A stretch of DNA of 64,000 nt, taken from Bacteroidota bacterium (lineage in GTDB: Bacteria > Bacteroidota > Bacteroidia > Bacteroidales > JAGONC01). The notes under the pieces were generated by a model. It was given only the letters and a program-made list of their open reading frames with translations. It searched no databases and was not told the origin of the DNA. The stretch is from assembly GCA_026391695.1 (NCBI GenBank), contig JAPLDP010000034.1, forward strand, positions 1-64,000. The letters are read 5' to 3'. Each line of letters starts with the position of its first letter. Within the stretch, counting starts at the first letter, position 1. The translations under genes and the position numbers were made by a program. Shown here piece by piece: positions 1 to 14,054 of the stretch.

Positions 1-1
1 G

Positions 2-949
2 ACTAAAGTGGTCAGCGTATATTTGCAAACGCAGACTACCATCGTTTTACAACCTGGCCCTGAAGATGGCAAGGATGTCCTGTTATCCACGCTGGATCCG
101 GATTTAAACTTGTATTATGATCCTGATTTCTGCGCGGTTTCCTGGACTTTCCAGGGAGAACCTTATATTTACAGAAGCCTGATTGAATTTGATCTTTCGG
201 CTATTCCGGCCGGTGCAGCCATAATCAATGCTTCGTTATATTTATCAAACAATCCAAATTCCACAACAAATAATGGGGAGCATTCCTCCTTATCAGGCTC
301 AAATGAATGCTGGTTATCTCGCGTTATTGAGGAATGGGGTAAATATTCAGTAACCTGGAATAACCAACCTTCTGTCACAGAGGAGAATAAGGTTTATTTG
401 CCATATACGCTTGATCCTCATCAGGACTTCGAGGTTGATGTCAGGCAGCTTATACAGGATATGATTGATAATCCTGCATCCGGTCATGGATTCATGTATA
501 AGCTGGCTAATGAAGATGGCAATTCAACATCTTTTCTGTGGGATTTTGGCGATGGTGAAACATCCGATATTCAGAATCCGTTACATTTTTATGAAGAAAT
601 TGGAGAATATCAGTTACAACTTATCGCATATAATGACCTTGGATCGGATACCATCGTGGAACTCCTCGATATCATCACATCCAGTGATCAGATAATGATG
701 GATCAGATAAGCATTTACCCAAATCCTGCACATGAGAAGATTTATCTGAAAATTGATTCCGACGATTTCAATTTACTTCACTATCAGTTGCTAAACATGC
801 AGGGCCAGCTAATCAGGGAAGATAAGCTTTATCTTGCAGGTAATGGTTGCTTTAATTCTATTGATATTTCGCACTTCGAAGGAGGTATCTATTACTTCCG
901 TTTTTTCAACCAGGAAATATCTTTGACTAAGAAGGTGGTGATATACTAA
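2..949 (+). CDS. Secreted DNRLRE/PKD protein with T9SS tail, 5' end outside window
   Basis: The reading frame is open to the window edge, so the protein is N-terminally incomplete here. It begins with a TKVVSVYLQ stretch that matches the linker ending a PKD module in the two downstream paralogues, then passes directly into a DNRLRE (CBM96-like) domain (QPGPEDGKD, IEFDLS, TWNNQPS). One shortened PKD module follows (FLWDFGDG), then a type A T9SS sorting domain (YPNPAHEKI ... GGIYYFRF ... KKVVIY). T9SS tails direct export across the outer membrane and surface attachment or release. Compared with the paralogues, the end of the DNRLRE domain and the start of the PKD module are missing, so two modules are spliced at about residues 168-178. 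No catalytic domain is visible; an adhesive or matrix role is an inference. Confidence 0.8.
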   Translation, partial: TKVVSVYLQTQTTIVLQPGPEDGKDVLLSTLDPDLNLYYDPDFCAVSWTFQGEPYIYRSLIEFDLSAIPAGAAIINASLYLSNNPNSTTNNGEHSSLSGSNECWLSRVIEEWGKYSVTWNNQPSVTEENKVYLPYTLDPHQDFEVDVRQLIQDMIDNPASGHGFMYKLANEDGNSTSFLWDFGDGETSDIQNPLHFYEEIGEYQLQLIAYNDLGSDTIVELLDIITSSDQIMMDQISIYPNPAHEKIYLKIDSDDFNLLHYQLLNMQGQLIREDKLYLAGNGCFNSIDISHFEGGIYYFRFFNQEISLTKKVVIY

Positions 950-957
950 TTGGAACT

Positions 958-1112
958 CAGGGATAGGGGTGGCTAAAAAGCCTTAGTGCGCCTTTGTCGC
1001 CTTTGTGGTTACATCTTAAGTTATTGAACCACAAGGATCACAAAGTACACGCAGAGGAGCACAAAGGAGGAAATCTAAAACATTTTAACTTATTAGTCAC
1101 CCCCATCCCTTT
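958..1112. repeat. Nested palindromic intergenic element
   Basis: The outer arms (GGGATAGGGGTGGCTAA near 959-976, matching TTAGTCACCCCCATCCC near 1093-1110) enclose a second inverted pair built on CTTTGTGGTT / AACCACAAG. It fills the gap between the first two paralogous genes. It could fold into a long hairpin and end transcription, or be a miniature mobile repeat. A related half (ACTTTGTGGTTTAATT) occurs near 21515. No protein is encoded. Confidence 0.5.
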
Positions 1113-1193
1113 AATACTGCCCTGAAATTTTTTTCAAACAGCTTTTATTAGATTGAATTATTTTGTATATTTAAAGGTTCTAAAATATATGAA

Positions 1194-3461
1194 ATGAATA
1201 GATACTTCCTGATCCTGATTGTAGCTCTCACTGTTGGATACATAGGTCCAACACAATCGCAGACTACTATCACTTTACAACCTGGCCCTGAAGATGGCAA
1301 GGATGCCTTTATTAGCACCTATTACCCTGACCAGAATTATTATTATCATATAGATTATATTGCTATGGCCTGGACTGCGGGAGGGATTCCGTTTGTAGTT
1401 AGATCTTTAATTGAATTTGATTTATCAGTGGTTCCATCAGGGGCATCTATAATCAACGCTTCTTTGTCATTATATAATAGTCCAGATCCTACCAATAATC
1501 ATGGTGAACACTCATCTTTATCCGGTCCAAATACCTGCTGGCTCCAACGGATAACTGACGAGTGGGATGAATATACAGTAACCTGGAACAATCAACCATC
1601 AACAACAACATTACATCAGGTTACTCTTAAACAATCAGTTGACCCTCACCAGGATTATGAAGATATAGATGTCACTCAACTTATAAAAGATATAATCGAT
1701 AATCCCGAAACGGGACATGGTTTTATGATACGGCTTATTACAGAAGAGTATTATAGGTGCATGATCTTTGCCTCAAGCGATCATCCGGATCCAAACCTTC
1801 ATCCTAAACTGGCCATCACATTTATTGCTCCTGTAGCTGATTTTTTATACATACTTGAAAATAAAACTGTATATTTCAACAATCTCTCGCAATGGGCTGA
1901 TACGTTTTTATGGAACTTCGGAGATGGTGTCCAATCTATTCTGGAAAATCCGGTACATGAATACCAGGATTTTGGAGATTATGAGGTGACCCTGATAGCC
2001 AGCAAGGAGGAAATGTCAGATACTGTGACGAAAGTGGTCAGAGTATGCTTGCAGCCTGTTGCTGAATTTGACTATCAGTTGGATGAATTTACATTGTCTG
2101 TCAGCAATACATCCCAAAATGCCCTTTCTTATTTCTGGGACTTCGGGGATGGCAGCTTCTCTTATATGGAAAATCCAACGCATGTTTATCCTGACGCAGG
2201 AGAGTACGAATTACGGCTGGTAGCCTATAATGATTGTGAGCCTGATACTGCAGTTGAATACATTACAGTATATCATCATTACGAGATTGATTTTGATTAT
2301 ACTTGTGGTGATCTCAGGGTTTCATTTGTTATGAATACCTCATCCGATTATGATTCATTTATTTGGGACTTCGGAGATGGAATCCAGTCTATACTTGAAA
2401 ATCCTGTGCATATTTATCAGGATTTTGGAGAATATGAAGTGACAGTGAAAGCCAGCAACGAGTTACAGTCAGATACTGTGGTGAAAATGATTAAAGTGTG
2501 CCAGCGGCCTGATGCTGAATTTGGCTATCAGTTGGATGGATATACATTGTCTGTGAACAATTTATCTCAAAATGCCAATTCTTACTTATGGGATTTTGGG
2601 GATGGCAACATCTCCTTTCTGGAGAACCCAACCTATGAATACCTGGTTGAGGGAGACTATGAAGTCAGTCTGATCGCATTTAATGAATGTGCACCTGACA
2701 CAGCGGTGGAAAATATTTCGATATGCAAATCCCCCGTTGCAGGTTTTGACTATATCTGTGAGGACTTCAGGGTTTCATTTATGAATACTACCATCAATTA
2801 TGATTCATGCATCTGGGATTATGGTGACGGTATTGGTTCTACATTGATTAATCCTGAACATATCTACCAGGAACCTGGAGATTATTCTGTAAATCTGGCA
2901 ATATGGCGTTTTTGCGGAGAAAATCTGTTGACACAGGAGCTGGTTCAGGTCATTACGGTTCCCTGTTCGCCACAGGCATCGTTTACATACGCCATAAGTG
3001 AATTTGAAATCTCATTCACAAATATGTCATTCAATGCCACATCATTTATATGGGATTTCGGCGACGGCGATACATCCGACATTCAGAATCCGGTGCATTC
3101 TTATGCTGAAATTGGGGATTATCAGGTACAACTGATCGCATATAATGACCATGGATCGGATACCATCGTGGAACTCATTAATATTACTTCTATTGATCAG
3201 ATATTGAAAAATAATATTATTAGCATTTTCCCCAATCCGGCACATGGGAGGATTTATCTGAAAATTGATTTTGGGGATTTTAGTTCACTTAACTATCAAT
3301 TACTAAACATGCAAGGCCAGATAATCAGGGAAGATAAATTATATCCTGCAGATAATGGTTGCCTTAATCCTATGGATATTTCATATCTAAAAGGAGGTAT
3401 CTATTATTTCCGGTTTTTCAACCAGGAAATATCTATGACTAAGAAAGTGGTGATATACTAA
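1194..3461 (+). CDS. Secreted DNRLRE protein with six PKD modules and T9SS sorting tail
   Basis: 755 residues. A signal peptide (residues 1-22, ending ...GPTQSQ) is followed by a DNRLRE/CBM96-like domain (about 23-215) with the usual IEFDLS and TWNNQPS motifs. Six PKD modules follow, each with a W-[DN]-[FY]-GDG signature, then a type A T9SS C-terminal domain (FPNPAHGRI ... GGIYYFRF). PKD modules 3-4 look like a duplicate of modules 1-2, which explains two extra modules relative to the next gene. The last ~110 residues are almost identical to the next gene. The protein is expected on the cell surface or secreted. No enzyme domain is seen; polysaccharide or cell-surface binding is only an inference from the modules. 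Confidence 0.85.
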   Translation: MNRYFLILIVALTVGYIGPTQSQTTITLQPGPEDGKDAFISTYYPDQNYYYHIDYIAMAWTAGGIPFVVRSLIEFDLSVVPSGASIINASLSLYNSPDPTNNHGEHSSLSGPNTCWLQRITDEWDEYTVTWNNQPSTTTLHQVTLKQSVDPHQDYEDIDVTQLIKDIIDNPETGHGFMIRLITEEYYRCMIFASSDHPDPNLHPKLAITFIAPVADFLYILENKTVYFNNLSQWADTFLWNFGDGVQSILENPVHEYQDFGDYEVTLIASKEEMSDTVTKVVRVCLQPVAEFDYQLDEFTLSVSNTSQNALSYFWDFGDGSFSYMENPTHVYPDAGEYELRLVAYNDCEPDTAVEYITVYHHYEIDFDYTCGDLRVSFVMNTSSDYDSFIWDFGDGIQSILENPVHIYQDFGEYEVTVKASNELQSDTVVKMIKVCQRPDAEFGYQLDGYTLSVNNLSQNANSYLWDFGDGNISFLENPTYEYLVEGDYEVSLIAFNECAPDTAVENISICKSPVAGFDYICEDFRVSFMNTTINYDSCIWDYGDGIGSTLINPEHIYQEPGDYSVNLAIWRFCGENLLTQELVQVITVPCSPQASFTYAISEFEISFTNMSFNATSFIWDFGDGDTSDIQNPVHSYAEIGDYQVQLIAYNDHGSDTIVELINITSIDQILKNNIISIFPNPAHGRIYLKIDFGDFSSLNYQLLNMQGQIIREDKLYPADNGCLNPMDISYLKGGIYYFRFFNQEISMTKKVVIY

Positions 3462-3466
3462 TAAAC

Positions 3467-3502
3467 AAAGGGATGACATCTCGCCAGAGATGTCATCCCT
3501 TT
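3467..3502 (+). terminator. Perfect 16-bp hairpin after the six-PKD gene
   Basis: AAAGGGATGACATCTC and its exact complement GAGATGTCATCCCTTT are separated by a GCCA loop, six bases after the stop codon. A short T-run follows. The same hairpin sequence recurs after the next gene and, diverged, at 50.7 kb. It is probably a terminator; its repetition suggests a mobile or homogenised repeat. Confidence 0.7.
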
Positions 3503-3542
3503 GACCAAAAATTTATAATTTATTGATTGTAAATAAAATTAC

Positions 3543-5363
3543 ATGAAACAGTCCCTTTACTTTTTACTGATTTTTCTCAGCATTATCCTTTATTGCAAAT
3601 GCACAATTTTTTCCCAGACAATTATTATTCTGCAGCCGGATGCGGAGGAAGGAAAGGATGCTCCCATATCCGATTATAACCCAAATACCAATGATGGTAG
3701 TAGGAATGAGTTAACTGCCCTGGCCTGGACACAACAAGGAATCCCGTTCCTTTGCAGAGGTGTGATTGAGTTTGACCTGACAATTATTCCGGAAGGTTCA
3801 ATTATTACTGATGCTTTACTTTCATTATTTAATAATCCGGAATCCTCATCTAACAATGGTGAACATTCTTCTCTTTCAGGTTCGAATGCCTGTCGGATTC
3901 TACGGATCACTGAAGAATGGGATGAATTTACAGTGACATGGAACAATCAGCCTTCTGTCACCACACTCCATCAGGTTACGCTTCCCCAATCAATCGATCC
4001 CCATCAGGATTATGAGGATATAGATGTCACGCAACTTGTTATAGATATGATCGATAACTCAGAGGTGAGTCATGGTTTTATGATTCGTCTCATCACTGAA
4101 GAGTATTACCGATGCATGACCTTTGCATCAAGCGATTATACGGATCCAGACCTTTATCCTAAACTGGCTATCACATTTACTGCCCCTGTAGCTGATTTTT
4201 TATACATACTTGAAAATAAAACTGTATATTTCAATAATCTCTCACAATGGGCTGATACGTATTTATGGGAATTTGGCGATGGCATTCAGTCAATACAGGA
4301 GAACCCTGTTCATGCCTATCAGCAATTTAGTGACTACGAAGTAACCCTGATTGCTAGTAATCAGTCATTTGCAGATACTGTAACCAAAGTGGTCAGAGTA
4401 TGCTTGCAGCCTGTTGCTGAATTTGACTATCATTTGGATGAATTTACATTGTCTGTCAACAATACTTCCCAAAATGCCCTTTCCTATTTCTGGGACTTCG
4501 GTGATGGCAGCTTCTCTTTTCTGGAGAACCCAACCTATAAATATCTTGATGAAGGAGATTATAAAGTCAGTCTGATCGCATATAATGACTGTGAACCTGA
4601 CACCACAATAAAATACATTTCGATCTGCACAAATCCTGAAGCCGGTTTTGATTATATCTGTGATGACCTCAGGATTTCATTTATGAATACTGCTATCAAT
4701 TATGATTCATGCATCTGGGATTATGGTGACGGAATTGGTTCAACTTTAATTAATCCTGAACACATCTACCTTGAACCTGGAGATTATTGTGTTGGGATAA
4801 CAGTATGGCGTTTTTGCGGGGAAAATCTGTTGACGCAGGAGCTGGTTCAGGTTATTACGGTTCCCTGTTCGCCACAGGCATCGTTTACATACGCCATAAG
4901 TGAATTTAAAGTCTCATTCACAAACATGTCATTCAATGCAACATCATTTATATGGGATTTCGGCGACGGCGATACATCCGACATTCAGAATCCGGTGCAT
5001 TCTTATGCTGAAATTGGTGATTATCAGGTACAACTGATCGCATATAATGACCATGGATCGGATACCATCGTGGAACTCATTAATATTACTTCTATTGATC
5101 AGATATTGAAAAATAATATTATTAGCATTTTCCCCAATCCGGCACATGGGAGGATATATCTGAAAATTGATTCTGAGGATTTTAGTTCACTTTACTATCA
5201 ATTACTAAACATGCAAGGCCAGATAATCAGGGAAGATAAATTATATCCTGCAGATAATGGTTGCCTTAATATTATGGATATTTCGTTTCTTAAAGGAGGC
5301 ATCTATTATTTCCGATTTTTCAACCAGGAAATATCTTTGACTAAGAAGGTGGTGATATACTGA
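3543..5363 (+). CDS. Secreted DNRLRE protein with four PKD modules and T9SS sorting tail
   Basis: 606 residues. Signal peptide (residues 1-25, MKQSLYFLLIFLSIILYCKC...), with Cys20/21 that could also suggest lipidation. Then a DNRLRE/CBM96-like domain (IEFDLT, TWNNQPS), four PKD modules (YLWEFGDG, YFWDFGDG, CIWDYGDG, FIWDFGDG) and a type A T9SS tail (FPNPAHGRI, KKVVIY). It is the third member of a tandem family and shares nearly identical stretches with the preceding gene, notably PKD1 and the last ~150 residues, which points to gene conversion. Surface export through T9SS is expected. The ligand is unknown. Confidence 0.85.
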   Translation: MKQSLYFLLIFLSIILYCKCTIFSQTIIILQPDAEEGKDAPISDYNPNTNDGSRNELTALAWTQQGIPFLCRGVIEFDLTIIPEGSIITDALLSLFNNPESSSNNGEHSSLSGSNACRILRITEEWDEFTVTWNNQPSVTTLHQVTLPQSIDPHQDYEDIDVTQLVIDMIDNSEVSHGFMIRLITEEYYRCMTFASSDYTDPDLYPKLAITFTAPVADFLYILENKTVYFNNLSQWADTYLWEFGDGIQSIQENPVHAYQQFSDYEVTLIASNQSFADTVTKVVRVCLQPVAEFDYHLDEFTLSVNNTSQNALSYFWDFGDGSFSFLENPTYKYLDEGDYKVSLIAYNDCEPDTTIKYISICTNPEAGFDYICDDLRISFMNTAINYDSCIWDYGDGIGSTLINPEHIYLEPGDYCVGITVWRFCGENLLTQELVQVITVPCSPQASFTYAISEFKVSFTNMSFNATSFIWDFGDGDTSDIQNPVHSYAEIGDYQVQLIAYNDHGSDTIVELINITSIDQILKNNIISIFPNPAHGRIYLKIDSEDFSSLYYQLLNMQGQIIREDKLYPADNGCLNIMDISFLKGGIYYFRFFNQEISLTKKVVIY

Positions 5364-6482: not shown

Positions 6483-6622
6483 CATAACGCCGAGCGGAGA
6501 TGCCGGCCAAGATTGTGTCGGTGTAAAGTTAAGAATTCATTATGCAGTATCCAAGCAGATACCCGCTTTCTCGGGGATTTAACATCGGGCTGGCATTTAC
6601 ACTTTCGTCGACTGTAGGTGAT
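6483..6622 (-). repeat. attC-like element after the HEPN gene
   Basis: A 140-bp imperfect palindrome that begins right at the HEPN stop codon. Inverted arms TGCCGGCC / GGCTGGCA and GTGTAAA / TTTACAC are visible. On the minus strand its far end reads CTCGGCGTTATGT, close to a GTTRRRY core site. The CGCCGAGC..AGATGCC end is shared with the elements at 7383, 10722 and 11290; the centre is different, as expected for attC sites. Confidence 0.5.
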
Positions 6623-7012
6623 TTATTGCTTGGTAAGAGTTTCTATTTCTTTTATGAATTGATCGACTTCAGGAATTAATGTTATCACATTTTCCTCTTC
6701 AAAATCGAAAAAGTCACCGTAATCCCCTTTCTGTCGGAAGTCAAACAGGTCAGAATATAGAATTCCCAGCGATTTATCTAGTTTCTCAGTTTTTATAAAA
6801 AGAAGCAGAAATTGAGTTTTAACTCCTGAGTGAGTATGGCTATTGATGTCATGTTTGGCAAATAGAGCTAAAACAGCATAAAAACAAGCATAATACAATC
6901 GGTTAATTGAAGAATTCCAACTTCTTGCCTCAGCAAGTGATTTCGCATCGTTGAAAGTTCTCCATGCCCTTTCAATACGATATGCAATATATTCTTCTTG
7001 AGTTTTTGGCAT
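6623..7012 (-). CDS. HEPN-domain protein (UPF0332-like), toxin-type partner
   Basis: 129 residues, all helical, with the HEPN signature around NRLYYACFYAVLALF and the RQKGDYGDFFDF segment common in UPF0332 proteins. HEPN proteins are RNases or nucleotide-binding partners of minimal nucleotidyltransferases. The gene begins four bases after the stop of the nucleotidyltransferase gene, so the two form an MNT-HEPN operon. In characterised systems the nucleotidyltransferase AMPylates and silences the HEPN RNase. That role is inferred here from family and context. An attC-like element follows directly. Confidence 0.82.
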   Translation of the reverse strand: MPKTQEEYIAYRIERAWRTFNDAKSLAEARSWNSSINRLYYACFYAVLALFAKHDINSHTHSGVKTQFLLLFIKTEKLDKSLGILYSDLFDFRQKGDYGDFFDFEEENVITLIPEVDQFIKEIETLTKQ

Positions 7013-7016
7013 TTAT

Positions 7017-7334
7017 TTATATGGCTATTCCTTCGTTCGAAATATTTTTGTATAGGGGAGTCATCCAATATTTAGATTCCCATTCCTGTTTGTTATATAC
7101 AAATGTTGAGAAAGCTTCTCCGAGTTCCAATTCTACATCAAATAATTTGTGCCTGAAGACTTTTTCAGTTTCTATATCTGCTTTTGTGTTGATTAGAATT
7201 AGGATGTCCCAATCAGAATCAGGTCGTTCATCTCCTCTCGCTCTTGAACCATACAGAATAATATCTGCAGTCGGGTCAATTTCCTTAACCCGCTTCTTAA
7301 TCATCGATAGTACTATTTGCTTTTGGTTCTTCAT
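7017..7334 (-). CDS. Minimal nucleotidyltransferase (MNT), antitoxin-type partner of HEPN
   Basis: 105 residues with the DNA polymerase beta-type active site: YGSRARGDERPDSDWD (GS-x-R followed by D-x-D), and a third acidic residue in DVELELGE. The start at 7334 gives the usual N-terminus (MKNQKQIVLSMIKKRV); a longer frame would run into the attC-like element and is not credible. With the HEPN gene four bases downstream it makes a two-gene toxin-antitoxin type module. Members of this fold can also be antibiotic nucleotidyltransferases, but the small size and HEPN partner favour MNT. Confidence 0.85.
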   Translation of the reverse strand: MKNQKQIVLSMIKKRVKEIDPTADIILYGSRARGDERPDSDWDILILINTKADIETEKVFRHKLFDVELELGEAFSTFVYNKQEWESKYWMTPLYKNISNEGIAI

Positions 7335-7382
7335 AAAGCAAAGGTAAGAAAAAAAAGATTGGTTAACGAAGTTCACTTGCAT

Positions 7383-7507
7383 CCAACGCCGAGCGCAGAT
7401 GCCGGCCCGGATTGTTGTCCACCTCAGGAGGATGGTGTGAGAAGTGTACTCCGTCAGTTTTGACTGGCGGAGCCGCCTATTCGATTGAGGCATCGTACTT
7501 ATTTTAA
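7383..7507 (-). repeat. attC-like element after the 368-residue gene
   Basis: Starts right at the stop codon of the gene ending at 7508. Read on the minus strand it ends GCTCGGCGTTGGATGC, which holds a perfect GTTRRRY site (GTTGGAT). It shares long stretches with the elements at 10722 and 11290 (GCCGGCCCGGATTGTTGTCC, ACTGGCGGAGCCGCC) and carries the stem CTCCGTCAG / CTGGCGGAG. Confidence 0.55.
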
Positions 7508-8614
7508 TTATATTTTTTTCCTATTATTATGGAACGTGCTAAGTCTTCCATTTGCTTCAATATGGAATGTGTAATAATCACCTTCAAAATATAGGCTCTG
7601 TTCTCCATACTTGCTAAATCGCTGGTCTGGTTTTTCCTTCCAGAACTCCTGTATCTCATCATCTACCGAACTGATTACTTTTTGCATGACCATAATAACG
7701 TCCTCCGGATTCCACAGGAAATTATCTTTATGCTTGAATTGCTCGATTGCTTCAAACTCCTGGACATGCCTAAGAAATACATGGAGAAATCCTTTGAAGT
7801 CAAGATAAATGGCCCGTGCTCCTGCTATATTCAAATGCCGGGGAATGTAGCGATAGGTGTCTTTCATAAGAAACCAAAACAGGGAGGGTTTTTCGCTGCT
7901 CAATTTTTTTAAGTTGATCCCTGCATTATTCAATTCCTGTTTTAAGATTTCAAAGTTGCTGTTCATGGAATCTGACCACAACCGCTCTAATCTCTTTTGT
8001 TCCTCCTCTGTAATTACCTCTTTGTCAAACTTAATCTCCAAGTACTTTTCCTCAATGGCCGGTTTGAGTGTCCCATTATCCCGTATTTCGGCAGATTCAT
8101 CTTCTGAAAGGTTTTTTTCTTCATGAAACAGCTTCATTGCCAAATACCATTCCCGGTCGTGGGGACAAAGCCCAACACCATCACTGACTAACTTCTTTGT
8201 GAAACCATACATCCAATCATAATCACCGCCCTTTGGTTCTTTTTTGATCGGGATTTCTATTTTCCTTATGGCTCTTTTTTCCTCTTTGTGGTAAAGGTTT
8301 TCATGAGGCCAGGGAGAAGGGAAGATTGATTTTATATCAGTGCTATTGATACCTTCTTTTCTGATGTACTCTGCTGCTTCCACCGGTATATCATAGCCCA
8401 GGTATTGTGCTTTAATCTTTCCGTGTGTACTTTCATCAGAATTGGCCCGAAACTTTTCTTCAAATTGTTCTCTTTCGTACTGATTGTACAAAAAGACCAC
8501 CGTTAAGTCCTTACCAAACATTTTGTACCCTTCAGAATCTTCATGGAAGGTTAGCACTGCTACTTTATCATCCCTGCCAATAAGGGCATATATTTCTTCA
8601 TGCGAATAGCTCAT
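7508..8614 (-). CDS. Unrecognised protein, second gene of a two-gene unit
   Basis: 368 residues, hydrophilic, without signal peptide or membrane helices. I do not recognise the family firmly. The C-terminal ~110 residues (YLDFKGFLHVFLRHV ... DDEIQEFW ... YYTFHIEANGRLSTFH) have the His-...-YY-x5-G-R-L-x-T-F layout seen in BECR-fold nucleases (colicin D/EndoU/RelE-like), a weak resemblance read by eye. The start at 8614 (MSYSHEEIY) lies four bases after the stop of the upstream gene, so the two are translated together. It sits in one cassette-like unit, followed at once by an attC-like element. A toxin or defence effector role is speculative. Confidence 0.7.
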   Translation of the reverse strand: MSYSHEEIYALIGRDDKVAVLTFHEDSEGYKMFGKDLTVVFLYNQYEREQFEEKFRANSDESTHGKIKAQYLGYDIPVEAAEYIRKEGINSTDIKSIFPSPWPHENLYHKEEKRAIRKIEIPIKKEPKGGDYDWMYGFTKKLVSDGVGLCPHDREWYLAMKLFHEEKNLSEDESAEIRDNGTLKPAIEEKYLEIKFDKEVITEEEQKRLERLWSDSMNSNFEILKQELNNAGINLKKLSSEKPSLFWFLMKDTYRYIPRHLNIAGARAIYLDFKGFLHVFLRHVQEFEAIEQFKHKDNFLWNPEDVIMVMQKVISSVDDEIQEFWKEKPDQRFSKYGEQSLYFEGDYYTFHIEANGRLSTFHNNRKKI

Positions 8615-8618
8615 ATTA

Positions 8619-10700
8619 TTACGCAGGCTTATCAGACCAGAACATTCCAATTGGAATATGCTTGCTTACTCTTTGGAAAACGCCATCATCTAAATAAGTT
8701 GAATACTGGCTATCTTTATAGTTTTTACCGTCTTTTTCACAGATAATTTCATCTGCGATAGCAGAAGAAACTGGAAAGACTTCTCCATTTTTAATGGCAT
8801 TTAACAACTCTGACTGGTCGGTTCTCAATTTCATTTTGAATTTCAATCCCTCTGAAGAGGGTTCGTAGTTGATATTAACGTCTGTGTCCACTGGTCGTCT
8901 TTTCAGGTAAAGAACTCCATCATACTTTATTATCTCTGATAATTCGGGTGATTTGTTGGCGGATTCAATGACGGATAGGTATTTAGCCTGGTCTTCTAAC
9001 CATTTTTTGAAATTATCCCTTTCAGTAGGTATTTCCGAAAATGTGTCCATCCATCCTACAATATCTGTGACATGGCCTAAAACACTAATCAGGACTTCCT
9101 TATCTTCCATGTTCCATGCAAGGGTGAAGGAGAATACTTTTTCATTGCCTTTCTGAACCAAAGCTGTAAATAAGTTTTTTAGTGCAGTTAGGGTATCATT
9201 TAACAAATCCTGTGTGGTCCTATCGGAATGAAATACACAGGGTATATTGCAATACATATCTTCAGGAATCAGGTAGATAAGGTTGTCAGGAATAAACAAG
9301 TCGGTATCCAGCCTATTGAGTGCTTTCTTTAACTCAAATACATCATATTCAACCGCATTGTGGATTTCACTTCCAATAGAAAGGCTATCGAATATTGAAA
9401 CTAACCTATCATGTTTAGGTTTTTCAGCCTGTTCATGATAAGAAACCAGCATTCTTATTCCTTCACCCTTGTTAATTGCATACGGTACTAACTTCTGAGT
9501 AACTGTTTGAGGAGCTTCTTCAATTACCCTGCGGACTTCCGGTTTTTCTAAACCGAAGTACTCAAATATCTGTGGATTTCCTTGCAAATAGTTAGTTACA
9601 AGACTTTTCCATTTAGCCAGAGGTAGTTTACCATCTACCCTAAAAATTTTGGTATATACGCTGCGTCTCCCAAAATCGGTCAATTTTGAATCAAGCCGTT
9701 CAAGCATCAAGTCTTTATTGTAAGATCTGATAGCTCCATCAAAATGGTTAAAACATTCTTGTTTCTTCTCATATATGGAATGAACGTATCTGCATCCATA
9801 GGTATCTACTAATTCCGGAGCAGGTTCATTTCTTACTTCTTCTAATTCGAATTCATAGTTGTTTCCGCTATGTTTCCAGTTGAAATCCGTGTTGACAATA
9901 CCATAATAAAGTTTTTCAAACTCATCACTTCTGTATTGAGTTGGACCAGAAGGGATATTGGCTATATCGTCAGAATATTTCGGTCCCCACCAATATTCAT
10001 ATTCATAAGATTTAAGAAAGGAGGGAGCATAACCTATCATATCCGTGTCCAGCGATATTCTTACAGTAACGTCTTTTACACAATGAAGGGCAACAAGCTC
10101 ATCTAAAAATTCAAAATGGAAATTATTCAAACGAGAAAGTGACCTACGAAAAAATGAGTTTGCAAAAACCGCTAAATCTGATTCTTTGTGTTTAAAAACT
10201 CCTTGGGACAAGTATTCAAATGACTGAAGCAAGTCACTCAGATATATCAATCCTGCTTTTTCCTTTTGGGCTAACTCTTTGAGGTCTGGGAAAACAGCAT
10301 ATAAAATTTCAGGGCTTATGTATGCAGCGCAAGAGGGATAATGAAATGTGCCGTTCTCAGAATAATTTGAGCCAAGCAAACCTATGAAAACCTCTTTATG
10401 TGGTTCAAATGCTTCACTGTATCTTTTGAGCAGTACTTTCCAACGAGCTGTATATATTTTTTCTGAATCTTCATTGTTGTCAGCAATTAAAATTCTCCCT
10501 ACCGTGTAAGTAATCCCAGGCTCGAAATAAAGTCCAAACGGAATAGCCCATCCAATTAAACGGTGCATGTCGTGGCTCATGTGTGTTGGCATTCCATAAA
10601 CGCCTGCTTGCCACATGCCATCTTCCAATGCTGACACGGTAAAACAGTGTCCGTACTTATTAACTTGATCAGTATTGAATACTCCGAAAAATGTTTTCAT
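8619..10700 (-). CDS. Large unrecognised protein, first gene of a two-gene unit
   Basis: 693 residues, soluble, no signal peptide or clear membrane segment. The N-terminal 110 residues contain a His-rich block (THMSHDMHRLIGWAIPFGL) followed by GRILIADNNED; the H-x3-H-x2-H and P/L-IG layout recalls HK97-type prohead protease motifs, but this is only a by-eye likeness. A second conserved-looking block at about 310-375 includes YGCRYVHSIYE, HFDGAIRSYN and the later YTKIFRVDG. It lies 24 bases inside the boundary of the attC-like element at 10722 and is followed after four bases by the 368-residue gene. Function unknown; context suggests a conflict or defence module. Confidence 0.72.
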   Translation of the reverse strand: MKTFFGVFNTDQVNKYGHCFTVSALEDGMWQAGVYGMPTHMSHDMHRLIGWAIPFGLYFEPGITYTVGRILIADNNEDSEKIYTARWKVLLKRYSEAFEPHKEVFIGLLGSNYSENGTFHYPSCAAYISPEILYAVFPDLKELAQKEKAGLIYLSDLLQSFEYLSQGVFKHKESDLAVFANSFFRRSLSRLNNFHFEFLDELVALHCVKDVTVRISLDTDMIGYAPSFLKSYEYEYWWGPKYSDDIANIPSGPTQYRSDEFEKLYYGIVNTDFNWKHSGNNYEFELEEVRNEPAPELVDTYGCRYVHSIYEKKQECFNHFDGAIRSYNKDLMLERLDSKLTDFGRRSVYTKIFRVDGKLPLAKWKSLVTNYLQGNPQIFEYFGLEKPEVRRVIEEAPQTVTQKLVPYAINKGEGIRMLVSYHEQAEKPKHDRLVSIFDSLSIGSEIHNAVEYDVFELKKALNRLDTDLFIPDNLIYLIPEDMYCNIPCVFHSDRTTQDLLNDTLTALKNLFTALVQKGNEKVFSFTLAWNMEDKEVLISVLGHVTDIVGWMDTFSEIPTERDNFKKWLEDQAKYLSVIESANKSPELSEIIKYDGVLYLKRRPVDTDVNINYEPSSEGLKFKMKLRTDQSELLNAIKNGEVFPVSSAIADEIICEKDGKNYKDSQYSTYLDDGVFQRVSKHIPIGMFWSDKPA

Positions 10701-10721
10701 TAGTCAAATAGTCTTTGTATG

Positions 10722-10843
10722 TGCCCTAACGTTGAGCTCAGATGCCGGTCCGGATTGTTGTCCGCCTCCGGCGGATAATGTGAGAGGTGCACTCCGTCAG
10801 CTATGACTGGCGGAGACACCTACTCGATTATGGTGCGTTATTT
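10722..10843 (-). repeat. attC-like element after the TonB-C gene
   Basis: On the minus strand it starts next to the stop codon with ATAACGCACC and ends CTCAACGTTAGGGC, so the ends are inverted repeats (ATAAC / GTTA) with core-site character. The stems TCCGCCTCCGGCGGA and CTCCGTCAG / CTGGCGGAG lie inside. It is closely similar to the elements at 7383 and 11290. Confidence 0.55.
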
Positions 10844-11266: not shown

Positions 11267-11289
11267 TGACTTGCTTGTTTTATAATGTA

Positions 11290-11414
11290 CCATAACGCCG
11301 AGCACAGATGCCTGCCCGGATTGTTGTCCGCCACCGGTGGACGATGTGAGTGGTGCACTCCGTTAGCTATGGCTGGCGGAGCCGCCTTTGAGATTGTCTG
11401 CTGTAGTTATTATA
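11290..11414 (-). repeat. attC-like element after the ParE toxin gene
   Basis: Begins at the toxin stop codon. Minus-strand ends are ATAACTACAG and GCTCGGCGTTATGG, inverted with respect to each other. Inside lie TCCGCCACCGGTGGA and CTCCGTTAG / CTGGCGGAG. It matches the elements at 7383 and 10722 along most of its length. Confidence 0.55.
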
Positions 11415-11726
11415 CTACTTTTTTCTTTTGTATAGTGTTGATTTTGTCAATAATCGTGTAGAATTATGCACCGTAAGTATATCAATTCTATAAATATCCA
11501 CAACTCGATAAACTATTCGGTAACTACCTCTTATTAACTCCCTTAAGTTTTTGTTATTAAATTCCGGGACAATTCTACCGGCTTTTGGGTGGGATTCCAA
11601 CAGATCTGTTGATTCAAATAAATTTTGAATTACAACTTTTGCATAACGTTCAGAATCTTTTGCAATATATTCACCAATATCATTAAGATCACGAATTGCA
11701 AAATCGGTCCAAACTACTTTAACCAT
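11415..11726 (-). CDS. RelE/ParE-family toxin
   Basis: 103 residues. The family pattern is clear: VWTDFAIRDLNDIGEYI, DSERYA, HPKAGRIVPE, RELIRGSYRIVYRV and the closing IDILTVHNSTRLL. ParE members poison DNA gyrase and RelE members cleave mRNA at the ribosome. The long first helix pair and the GR-x-VPE segment are more ParE-like, so gyrase is the likelier target, by inference. The gene overlaps the preceding antitoxin gene by 13 bases, the usual toxin-antitoxin arrangement. Confidence 0.88.
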   Translation of the reverse strand: MVKVVWTDFAIRDLNDIGEYIAKDSERYAKVVIQNLFESTDLLESHPKAGRIVPEFNNKNLRELIRGSYRIVYRVVDIYRIDILTVHNSTRLLTKSTLYKRKK

Positions 11727-11896
11727 TTGGAAAGCCTTTTTTTTGCTTCTTCCTTGGAATAAACTTTATCTGCTAATGATTCTTCTAATCCTTTTTGAAC
11801 TTTATCAATAAATATCAACTTATCTATGAGTTCATCAAGGCTGAAATTATCTGGAAGTTTTGAAACTGTTTTTATAACATTCTCTTTTGTCAACAT
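11714..11896 (-). CDS. Antitoxin of the ParE/RelE pair
   Basis: 60 residues, charged and helical (KLPDNFSLDELIDKLIFIDK ... YSKEEAKKRLSKWLK). Such short proteins pair with ParE/RelE toxins: the C-terminal amphipathic helix masks the toxin, and the N-terminus may be the DNA-binding or dimer part. Here no obvious ribbon-helix-helix or helix-turn-helix is visible. It is translated just before the toxin, with a 13-base overlap. Autoregulation of the pair is the family rule, not seen in the sequence. Confidence 0.8.
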   Translation of the reverse strand: MLTKENVIKTVSKLPDNFSLDELIDKLIFIDKVQKGLEESLADKVYSKEEAKKRLSKWLK

Positions 11897-12017: not shown

Positions 12018-12986
12018 TTATTTATTGGTGGTAGTTATTGCTTTAATAAGTTCATTTTCAGTTATTTCAATTACTCGGATTATCCCAGCTTCACTAGCTG
12101 AACATTGATTTGCTGTATTTATTACAACGAAATAAAATACTTTGTTATTGAAATAGATAGCAGGAGGGAAAGTTTTTTCTGTTTCAGTAAAATTCATTTT
12201 AAGTTCAGCTTTGTCCATATTAAATATTATAAGGTATCCGACATCCTTATTATATTCATTAGTGTATCTGTAAATTTGCGTAAAACCATCTATAATTCTA
12301 TCTTTTCCGTATCCTTTAGCTCTATCAAATATTTTTATTTCAACAACTAAAGGGTTTTCTGTATCTATTTCCCCTACAATATCGGCTCTACCGGAAGATG
12401 ACATTGGAGTCGAAAATGGGTAATCAACTCCTTGGTCAAGGAGGAACAACCTTAAATCATCTTCAAAGATTTGTTCATAGTTCTTTTTTGCAGTGTCATA
12501 CTGTTCAAATAATTTCTTCTTTGTAAACCATTCTGTCCTTCTCTTATACTTTTCAAGTAAGTAGATTGTTGAATTGGATTTGTCAAGCCTATCATCTAAG
12601 TAATAAAGTATTGGATAAACAAAATTTTTAATAAAAACTGTTTTTTTATCTTGATCACCCCGCGGAAGAACTTCAACATATAGAATCTGATCAGGTTCAT
12701 TTCTCGAAAAAAGGTATTTTATCAACTTATAGCTGCATGTTGCTTCTTCTTCTTGGCTTTCATAACTGTAGCTACCAAAATTTCTATTATTTAACATGTT
12801 CTCAATTTTTAAATCATCATAATGATATTTAACACACGCTTCATTTATAATATTATTGGTAACTCTTTCCTTTTCAATATTGGTAATAAAAAATTCAAGT
12901 TGATTTCCAAAATGGCGAAAATCTGCCCGCTCTAATCTGGACAGCCACTCTTGAAGTTTTTCTTTTAGATTGTAGATATAATACAT
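12018..12986 (-). CDS. PD-(D/E)XK nuclease-fold protein
   Basis: 322 residues. The N-terminal part is helical. The C-terminal half carries a restriction-endonuclease-like core: SGRADIVGEI (catalytic Asp), PLVVEIKIFDRA (E-x-K) and then GFTQIYRY with conserved Gln and Tyr, followed by a strand VGYLIIFNM. This is the pattern of PD-(D/E)XK nucleases, many of which act in defence or mobile-element biology. The substrate is unknown. No attC-like element is evident in the 120 bases downstream, unlike most neighbours. Immediately upstream lies a decayed tyrosine recombinase. Confidence 0.75.
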   Translation of the reverse strand: MYYIYNLKEKLQEWLSRLERADFRHFGNQLEFFITNIEKERVTNNIINEACVKYHYDDLKIENMLNNRNFGSYSYESQEEEATCSYKLIKYLFSRNEPDQILYVEVLPRGDQDKKTVFIKNFVYPILYYLDDRLDKSNSTIYLLEKYKRRTEWFTKKKLFEQYDTAKKNYEQIFEDDLRLFLLDQGVDYPFSTPMSSSGRADIVGEIDTENPLVVEIKIFDRAKGYGKDRIIDGFTQIYRYTNEYNKDVGYLIIFNMDKAELKMNFTETEKTFPPAIYFNNKVFYFVVINTANQCSASEAGIIRVIEITENELIKAITTTNK

Positions 12987-13910: not shown

Positions 13911-14054
13911 CGTTGCCGTACTAGTTACTCAGCCTCAAGCGGATGGTATGAGAAGCATACCTCGTCCGATAAATCTGGGGGGGCTGTCTACTTGATTATG
14001 CTCAGTTGAATAAACTTTTATCTTAATTTGTACGTTAGTTGTTTGTAATACAAA
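13911..14054 (-). repeat. Diverged attC-like element after a membrane-protein gene
   Basis: Directly follows the stop codon at 14055. It retains the order of blocks of the better copies: CCTCAAGCGGATGGTATGAG, CATACCTCGTCCG, GGGGCTGTCTACTTGATTA, but the terminal core sites are unclear. Probably a decayed member of the family. Confidence 0.35.

What the first reader, a model, noticed from the sequence alone, without database searches (positions are those of the whole stretch)
7508..10700. Unknown two-gene system carried as a cassette
A 693-residue and a 368-residue protein with a four-base gap, both soluble and unassignable by eye, occupy one cassette-like unit with an attC-like element at the far end. 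The large one has an unusual THMSHDMHR block; the small one ends with a His-YY-G-R-L-x-T-F pattern reminiscent of BECR-fold toxic nucleases. Large multi-gene cassettes are rare, and the neighbours are conflict modules, so a defence or toxin system is a reasonable guess. The family resemblance is weak and by eye.
Basis: inference. Interest (0 to 1): 0.6.

Follow-up and report, generated by a model that had tools for sequence, protein, structure and literature searches.

The report
Undescribed two-gene defence-like cassette
Two unnamed neighbouring genes form one mobile cassette: the larger belongs to an undescribed protein family that, in other bacteria, often sits beside genes that kill virus-infected cells, so the pair is probably an anti-virus system with its own exchangeable toxin, although nothing has been tested in the laboratory.

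Summary
The two ORFs (693 and 368 aa, 4-nt gap, minus strand) are real genes. Neither matches Pfam, NCBIfam, PADLOC, PHROGs or PDB sequences. The large protein belongs to an undescribed family. Its core (about residues 100-400) is shared with stand-alone ~350-aa proteins in Bacteroidota and Proteobacteria, on plasmids and in phage-like contigs. Eight more full-length homologues, all in Bacteroidota, form one clade with it. Five of those eight lie next to effector-type genes: a type II CBASS operon, a patatin, a TIR protein, a STAND ATPase and a nuclease-like protein. None has the small gene. The small gene's only full-length relative lies in a genome without the large gene. So the pairing is local. 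The best reading is a candidate abortive-infection module: a shared sensor or regulator plus an exchangeable effector, here the 368-aa protein. A BECR toxin fold was not shown. The 'attC-like' element is really two flanking repeats, one on each side. Each joins an attC-like stub ending in TTGT/T to the 3' end of a group II intron. A defence-enrichment test was inconclusive, and many short forms stand alone beside housekeeping genes. The core model is confident but has no clear structural match.

The parts
8619..10700 (-). Large gene (P0002), 693 aa: long form of an undescribed family
   Evidence: no library match; eight full-length homologues; one clade 100/100
9501..10403 (-). Core domain (about residues 100-400 of P0002) shared with stand-alone ~350-aa proteins; includes the RYxHSxY and FxHFDGA motifs (H307, H319, D321)
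   Evidence: alignments A2, A6; AF2 pLDDT mostly 75-98 over residues 91-380, with a dip to 47 in block 231-240
10403..10700 (-). N-terminal extension (residues 1-100) found only in long forms; motif D11...P38...H43D44..R47..G50; weak in-register similarity to phage S78 head-maturation proteases
   Evidence: hhalign 23.7 against 200 column-shuffles (best 23.2), 88 columns, probability 10%
8619..9500 (-). C-terminal extension (residues 401-693) found only in long forms, low-confidence model
7508..8614 (-). Small gene (P0001), 368 aa, candidate effector
   Evidence: full-length relative L060, 21% identity, E 2.7e-16
7511..7837 (-). C-terminal ~110 residues of P0001 with conserved H278-x3-RH and DYYTFHIEANGRLSTFH, toxin-like by eye
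   Evidence: no library profile match
10719..10830 (+). Flanking repeat upstream of the large gene: attC-like stub ending GGATTGT/T, then group II intron 3' end
7385..7487 (+). Flanking repeat downstream of the small gene, same structure
11285..11396 (+). Third copy, bounding the next cassette (TonB-like gene)
6483..6516 (+). Partial copy (stub half only), bounding the HEPN/nucleotidyltransferase cassette

Best explanation
The unit is a candidate anti-phage module carried as one cassette. Shown: the large protein belongs to a family whose core also exists as stand-alone proteins and whose long forms are found next to different effector-type genes. Inferred: the large protein is the conserved sensor or regulator. 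On infection it would license the locus's own effector, here the 368-aa protein, which damages the cell or phage nucleic acid, probably through its C-terminal H-x3-RH / YY..H.GRL..H domain, and infection aborts. The effector is exchangeable, as in other modular defence systems. Neither the trigger nor the enzymatic activity is shown.
For: Core family is rare and scattered: 6 of 395 sampled phylum genomes besides the window's own; 32 loci across Bacteroidota and Pseudomonadota; P. aeruginosa plasmids; phage-like contigs. Long-form neighbours: type II CBASS operon 39 bp upstream (Patatin 5.4e-32, DncV-like 2.4e-22, E2/E1, JAB); patatin 61 bp upstream (1.7e-15); TIR protein 182 bp upstream (PF10137 4.1e-6); STAND NB-ARC/TPR protein 52 bp downstream; 633-aa NERD/PD-(D/E)XK-like protein 85 bp upstream (weak profile hits, ELDIL..IIEVKAG motif). 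A 77%-identical copy of that 633-aa protein sits 38 bp upstream of a short form in another Flavobacterium, so short and long forms share a partner. Short forms also abut PDC-S39 (9 bp) and PDC-S06 (7 bp) candidate defence genes. Here the two genes are 4 bp apart inside one repeat-bounded cassette beside HEPN/MNT and ParE cassettes.
Against: Immediate neighbours did not clearly carry more PADLOC-matching genes than genes over 4.5 kb away in the same loci, so linkage could be general island membership. Many short forms are solitary beside housekeeping genes: parC/parE, gyrA and tmRNA, secA/queA. Three of eight other long forms have no recognised effector neighbour (L053, L054, L055). No fold, active site or toxicity is demonstrated.
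Confidence: 0.45

Rival explanations
1. The two genes are functionally independent passengers caught in one cassette. The large one acts alone, as the ~350-aa relatives seem to; the small one is an unrelated gene.
For: Neither gene is ever found with the other elsewhere. Many short forms are single genes in variable or housekeeping spots. L055 long form has no effector neighbour.
Against: Same strand, 4-bp gap, one cassette; long forms elsewhere are often close to an effector-type gene on the same strand.
Confidence: 0.27
2. A toxin-antitoxin-like pair: the small protein is a toxin kept in check by the large protein, with plasmid- or cassette-stabilising function.
For: Cassette arrays are rich in TA modules, and here ParE and HEPN/MNT modules sit in the same array. 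The small protein ends with a toxin-like pattern.
Against: A 693-aa antitoxin would be unusually large. Family members exist without any toxin partner. The P0001 relative lacks the large gene.
Confidence: 0.13
3. An ordinary metabolic or regulatory pair unrelated to conflict.
For: No defence profile matches either protein; some relatives sit beside housekeeping genes.
Against: No metabolic family matches; rare, scattered distribution on mobile DNA; effector-type neighbours.
Confidence: 0.08

Closest known systems
CBASS type II (patatin CapV, CD-NTase, Cap2, Cap3)
   Same: A long-form relative lies 39 bp downstream of a complete type II CBASS operon in Xanthomarina.
   Different: No CD-NTase, E1/E2 or JAB gene is next to the window's pair; the relative in that locus is frame-broken; other long forms lack CBASS.
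Modular abortive-infection systems with exchangeable effectors (e.g. CBASS or Pycsar with patatin or TIR effectors; general knowledge)
   Same: A conserved gene recurs beside different killer-type genes (patatin, TIR, nuclease-like, STAND).
   Different: The conserved gene is not a known synthase, ATPase or receptor, and has no library profile.
Integron cassettes carrying phage defence (reviewed in PMC12409362)
   Same: Small same-strand gene units bounded by repeats, mixed with TA-like modules.
   Different: Unit is 3.2 kb with two genes; boundary repeats carry group II intron 3' ends; no integron integrase over the cut-off in this genome.
Group IIC-attC introns (PMC7923331)
   Same: Intron 3' ends antisense to the cassette genes, next to GGATTGT/T, as reported for IIC-attC insertion at TTGT/T.
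   Different: Only the 3' terminus remains in the window; no Rfam intron match there.

Membership tests
   No Pfam match up to E 10 for the P0001 C-terminal domain; best PHROG is an unnamed family at E 0.0094
   Single-sequence AF2 model failed, pLDDT 38.9
   H278-x3-RH and Y348/G356/R357/L358/H362 conserved, but in only two or three sequences
Known defence system in PADLOC-DB 2.0 | Profile match of either protein | tested here: not met
   0 families for P0001, P0002 and short-form relatives
CBASS type II | CD-NTase with Cap2/Cap3 in the operon | tested here: not met
   Genes flanking the pair are a TonB-like gene, ParE, HEPN and nucleotidyltransferase; CBASS only beside the Xanthomarina relative
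Integron cassette | attC with RYYYAAC/GTTRRRY boxes forming one long hairpin | tested here: inconclusive
   Stub matches boxes only partly; folds do not give one long hairpin; TTGT/T target present
Integron cassette | Integron integrase in the genome | tested here: not met
   Best TIGR02249 match 114.6 bits against cut-off 265; array could still be an integrase-less cluster, and the genome is a 95-contig draft
Group II intron 3' end in the flanking repeats | Terminal sequence shared with intact introns of the same genome | tested here: met
   79% over 54-58 nt to the C38 copy, which overlaps an RF00029 match (37.6 bits, below gathering) with RF02001 D1-D4 nearby (107 bits, above); intact introns end GGTGTGAGAGG..CCTACTCGATTAT
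Phage S78 head-maturation protease (N-terminus of long forms) | Profile-profile similarity | tested here: inconclusive
   Score 23.7, 88 columns, none of 200 shuffles reached it, but best shuffle 23.2 and probability 10%
Phage S78 head-maturation protease (N-terminus of long forms) | Catalytic Ser of the SIGF motif | tested here: not met
   No conserved Ser at the aligned place in long forms

The most novel reading that the evidence does not exclude
The long form carries, at its N-terminus, a catalytically dead relative of the phage head-maturation protease. It acts as a decoy or docking part that senses phage head assembly, and the conserved core then passes the signal to whichever killer protein is encoded next door. 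This would be a new family of defence sensors built on a captured phage assembly fold.
Probability: 0.1. Interest if true: 0.85.

Novelty: new variant of a known kind. Interest (0 to 1): 0.5.

Why it matters
If true, it adds an undescribed sensor or regulator family, found in Bacteroidota and Proteobacteria, that recurs beside patatin, TIR, nuclease-like and STAND genes and the CBASS operon. That would give a marker gene for finding further uncharacterised defence loci. It would also show a larger-than-usual two-gene defence unit inside a repeat-bounded cassette array.

Tried and rejected
Sequence libraries (Pfam, NCBIfam, PADLOC, PHROGs, PDB) gave nothing for either protein. Structure: P0001 alone gave pLDDT 38.9, unusable. 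P0002 gave a confident core but no Foldseek match below E 0.001 in PDB or BFVD and no VIA-align Z over 4.8; the 693-aa model may hide single-domain matches, so this is no proof of a new fold. PDB hits of the P0001-relative C-terminus were propeller-repeat chance matches. tblastn of C-terminal and N-terminal pieces against phages and plasmids gave only chance hits. The defence-enrichment comparison (near against far genes) was inconclusive: both sets hit PADLOC. tRNA-site insertion as a general rule was rejected: only L020 lies just after a tmRNA. Rfam found no family in the window repeats. A fixed two-gene operon was rejected. Candidate P0001 hits other than G377 and G516 looked like chance.

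Full report
1. What is there. Two minus-strand ORFs, 693 aa (10700-8619) and 368 aa (8614-7508), are separated by four bases. No match was found in Pfam, NCBIfam, PADLOC or the PDB, and only chance-level PHROG matches for the small protein. Homology shows both are real genes.

2. The large protein. tblastn found partial relatives in P. aeruginosa plasmids (E 2e-18) and in an unannotated phage-labelled record (E 1e-14). These are complete ~350-aa proteins that match only residues about 110-395. A profile of this core found 6 further carriers in 395 phylum genomes and 32 loci in the species collection. Two architectures exist: short (~350 aa) and long (~690-750 aa). Counting a later genus-wide search, there are eight long forms besides the window's, all in Bacteroidota. 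A tree of the core puts all nine on one branch (100/100); the window's nearest row is L106 at 47% identity. Invariant core residues include D218, W237, W275, H307, H319, D321, G322 and A323. AlphaFold2 modelled most of the core (about residues 91-380) well, but no clear structural match was found. The whole-protein query may have hidden single-domain matches.

3. Neighbours of the long forms. Xanthomarina L016: directly after a type II CBASS operon (39 bp; Pfam-confirmed patatin, DncV-like, E2/E1 and JAB); the relative there is frame-broken. L056: patatin 61 bp upstream. L107: TIR protein 182 bp upstream, with a DUF4062-like gene nearby, by eye; DUF4062 proteins were recently reported as anti-phage NADases (PMC13174449). 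L106: STAND NB-ARC/TPR protein 52 bp downstream. L105: 633-aa protein 85 bp upstream with a PD-(D/E)XK-type motif and weak NERD/CARF-PDDEXK hits. L105 and L054 share two small downstream genes (58% and 70% identity). L053 and L055 have no recognised effector. The 633-aa protein also precedes a short form in L028 (77% identity between the two copies), so short and long forms share a partner. Other short forms abut PDC-S39 and PDC-S06 genes. Many, however, are single genes beside housekeeping genes.

4. The small protein. One full-length relative was found (L060, 21% identity, E 2.7e-16), plus a C-terminal fragment at a contig start, HYHIRINPQGRLTQFHTV. The full-length relative's genome has no large-gene relative, and no long-form locus has the small gene. 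The H-x3-RH and GRL..H positions are conserved, which fits a catalytic C-terminal domain, but there is no profile or fold support for BECR.

5. The cassette. A ~110-nt repeat lies on both sides of the pair (7385-7487, 10719-10830) and around neighbouring units. Its last ~58 nt match the 3' ends of group II introns in the same genome. The C38 copy overlaps an RF00029 match (37.6 bits, below gathering), with an RF02001 D1-D4 match of 107 bits nearby. The first ~40 nt end in GGATTGT/T. Group IIC-attC introns insert in attC sites at TTGT/T, antisense to the cassette genes (PMC7923331), which is the arrangement here. So the element is probably an attC stub with an intron remnant. No integron integrase passed the cut-off. 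Integron cassettes are known reservoirs of phage defence, though systems of more than two genes were absent there (PMC12409362).

6. Mechanism. Inferred: the large protein is the conserved sensor or regulator and the small one the local effector, in an abortive-infection module with exchangeable effectors. Limits: a near/far comparison of PADLOC matches did not separate immediate neighbours from genes over 4.5 kb away, and there is no functional evidence.

7. A speculative lead. The first ~100 residues of long forms align in register over 88 columns with phage S78 head-maturation proteases, including the S-D..N.YG and His motifs, without the catalytic Ser. The score exceeded all 200 shuffles, but narrowly (23.7 against 23.2), with probability 10%. 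This is a lead, not a finding.

Noticed in passing
window 7385-7487, 10719-10830, 11285-11396, 6483-6516, weak 13933-13997; also G000 contigs C15, C53, C21, C41, C38, C67, C17: Repeat family made of an attC-like stub (TAACGCCGAGC..GGATTGT/T) and a group II intron 3' terminus with a shortened domain V; bounds small gene cassettes and recurs across the genome.
   Followed up: partly
window 6623-7493: HEPN (E 6e-15) and nucleotidyltransferase (E 5e-11) pair, a MNT/HEPN-type module, in the adjacent cassette.
   Followed up: no
window 11415-11896: ParE toxin (E 1.5e-15) with a 60-aa probable antitoxin in another cassette.
   Followed up: no
window 12018-12986: 322-aa unassigned protein with a weak PADLOC PDC-M14B match (E 4e-4) and a nuclease-like VVEIKIFD motif by eye.
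   Followed up: no
L016 7701-9772: Long-form relative beside Xanthomarina CBASS is broken into two overlapping frames (534 and 161 aa).
   Followed up: partly
L107 9164-11792: Two TIR-like genes (PF10137 TIR and a DUF4062-like protein, the latter by eye) upstream of a long-form gene.
   Followed up: partly
L054 9210-10177 and L105 9149-10572: Two small genes conserved directly downstream of long forms (58% and 70% identity), the second ending in a probable membrane segment; unnamed.
   Followed up: partly
L099 355-1355: Repeat copy next to a tyrosine-recombinase fragment and an IS91-like remnant (by eye).
   Followed up: no
window 1-5363: Long repeated stretches (75-85% identical, up to 300 nt) between neighbouring large PKD-like surface-protein genes.
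   Followed up: no
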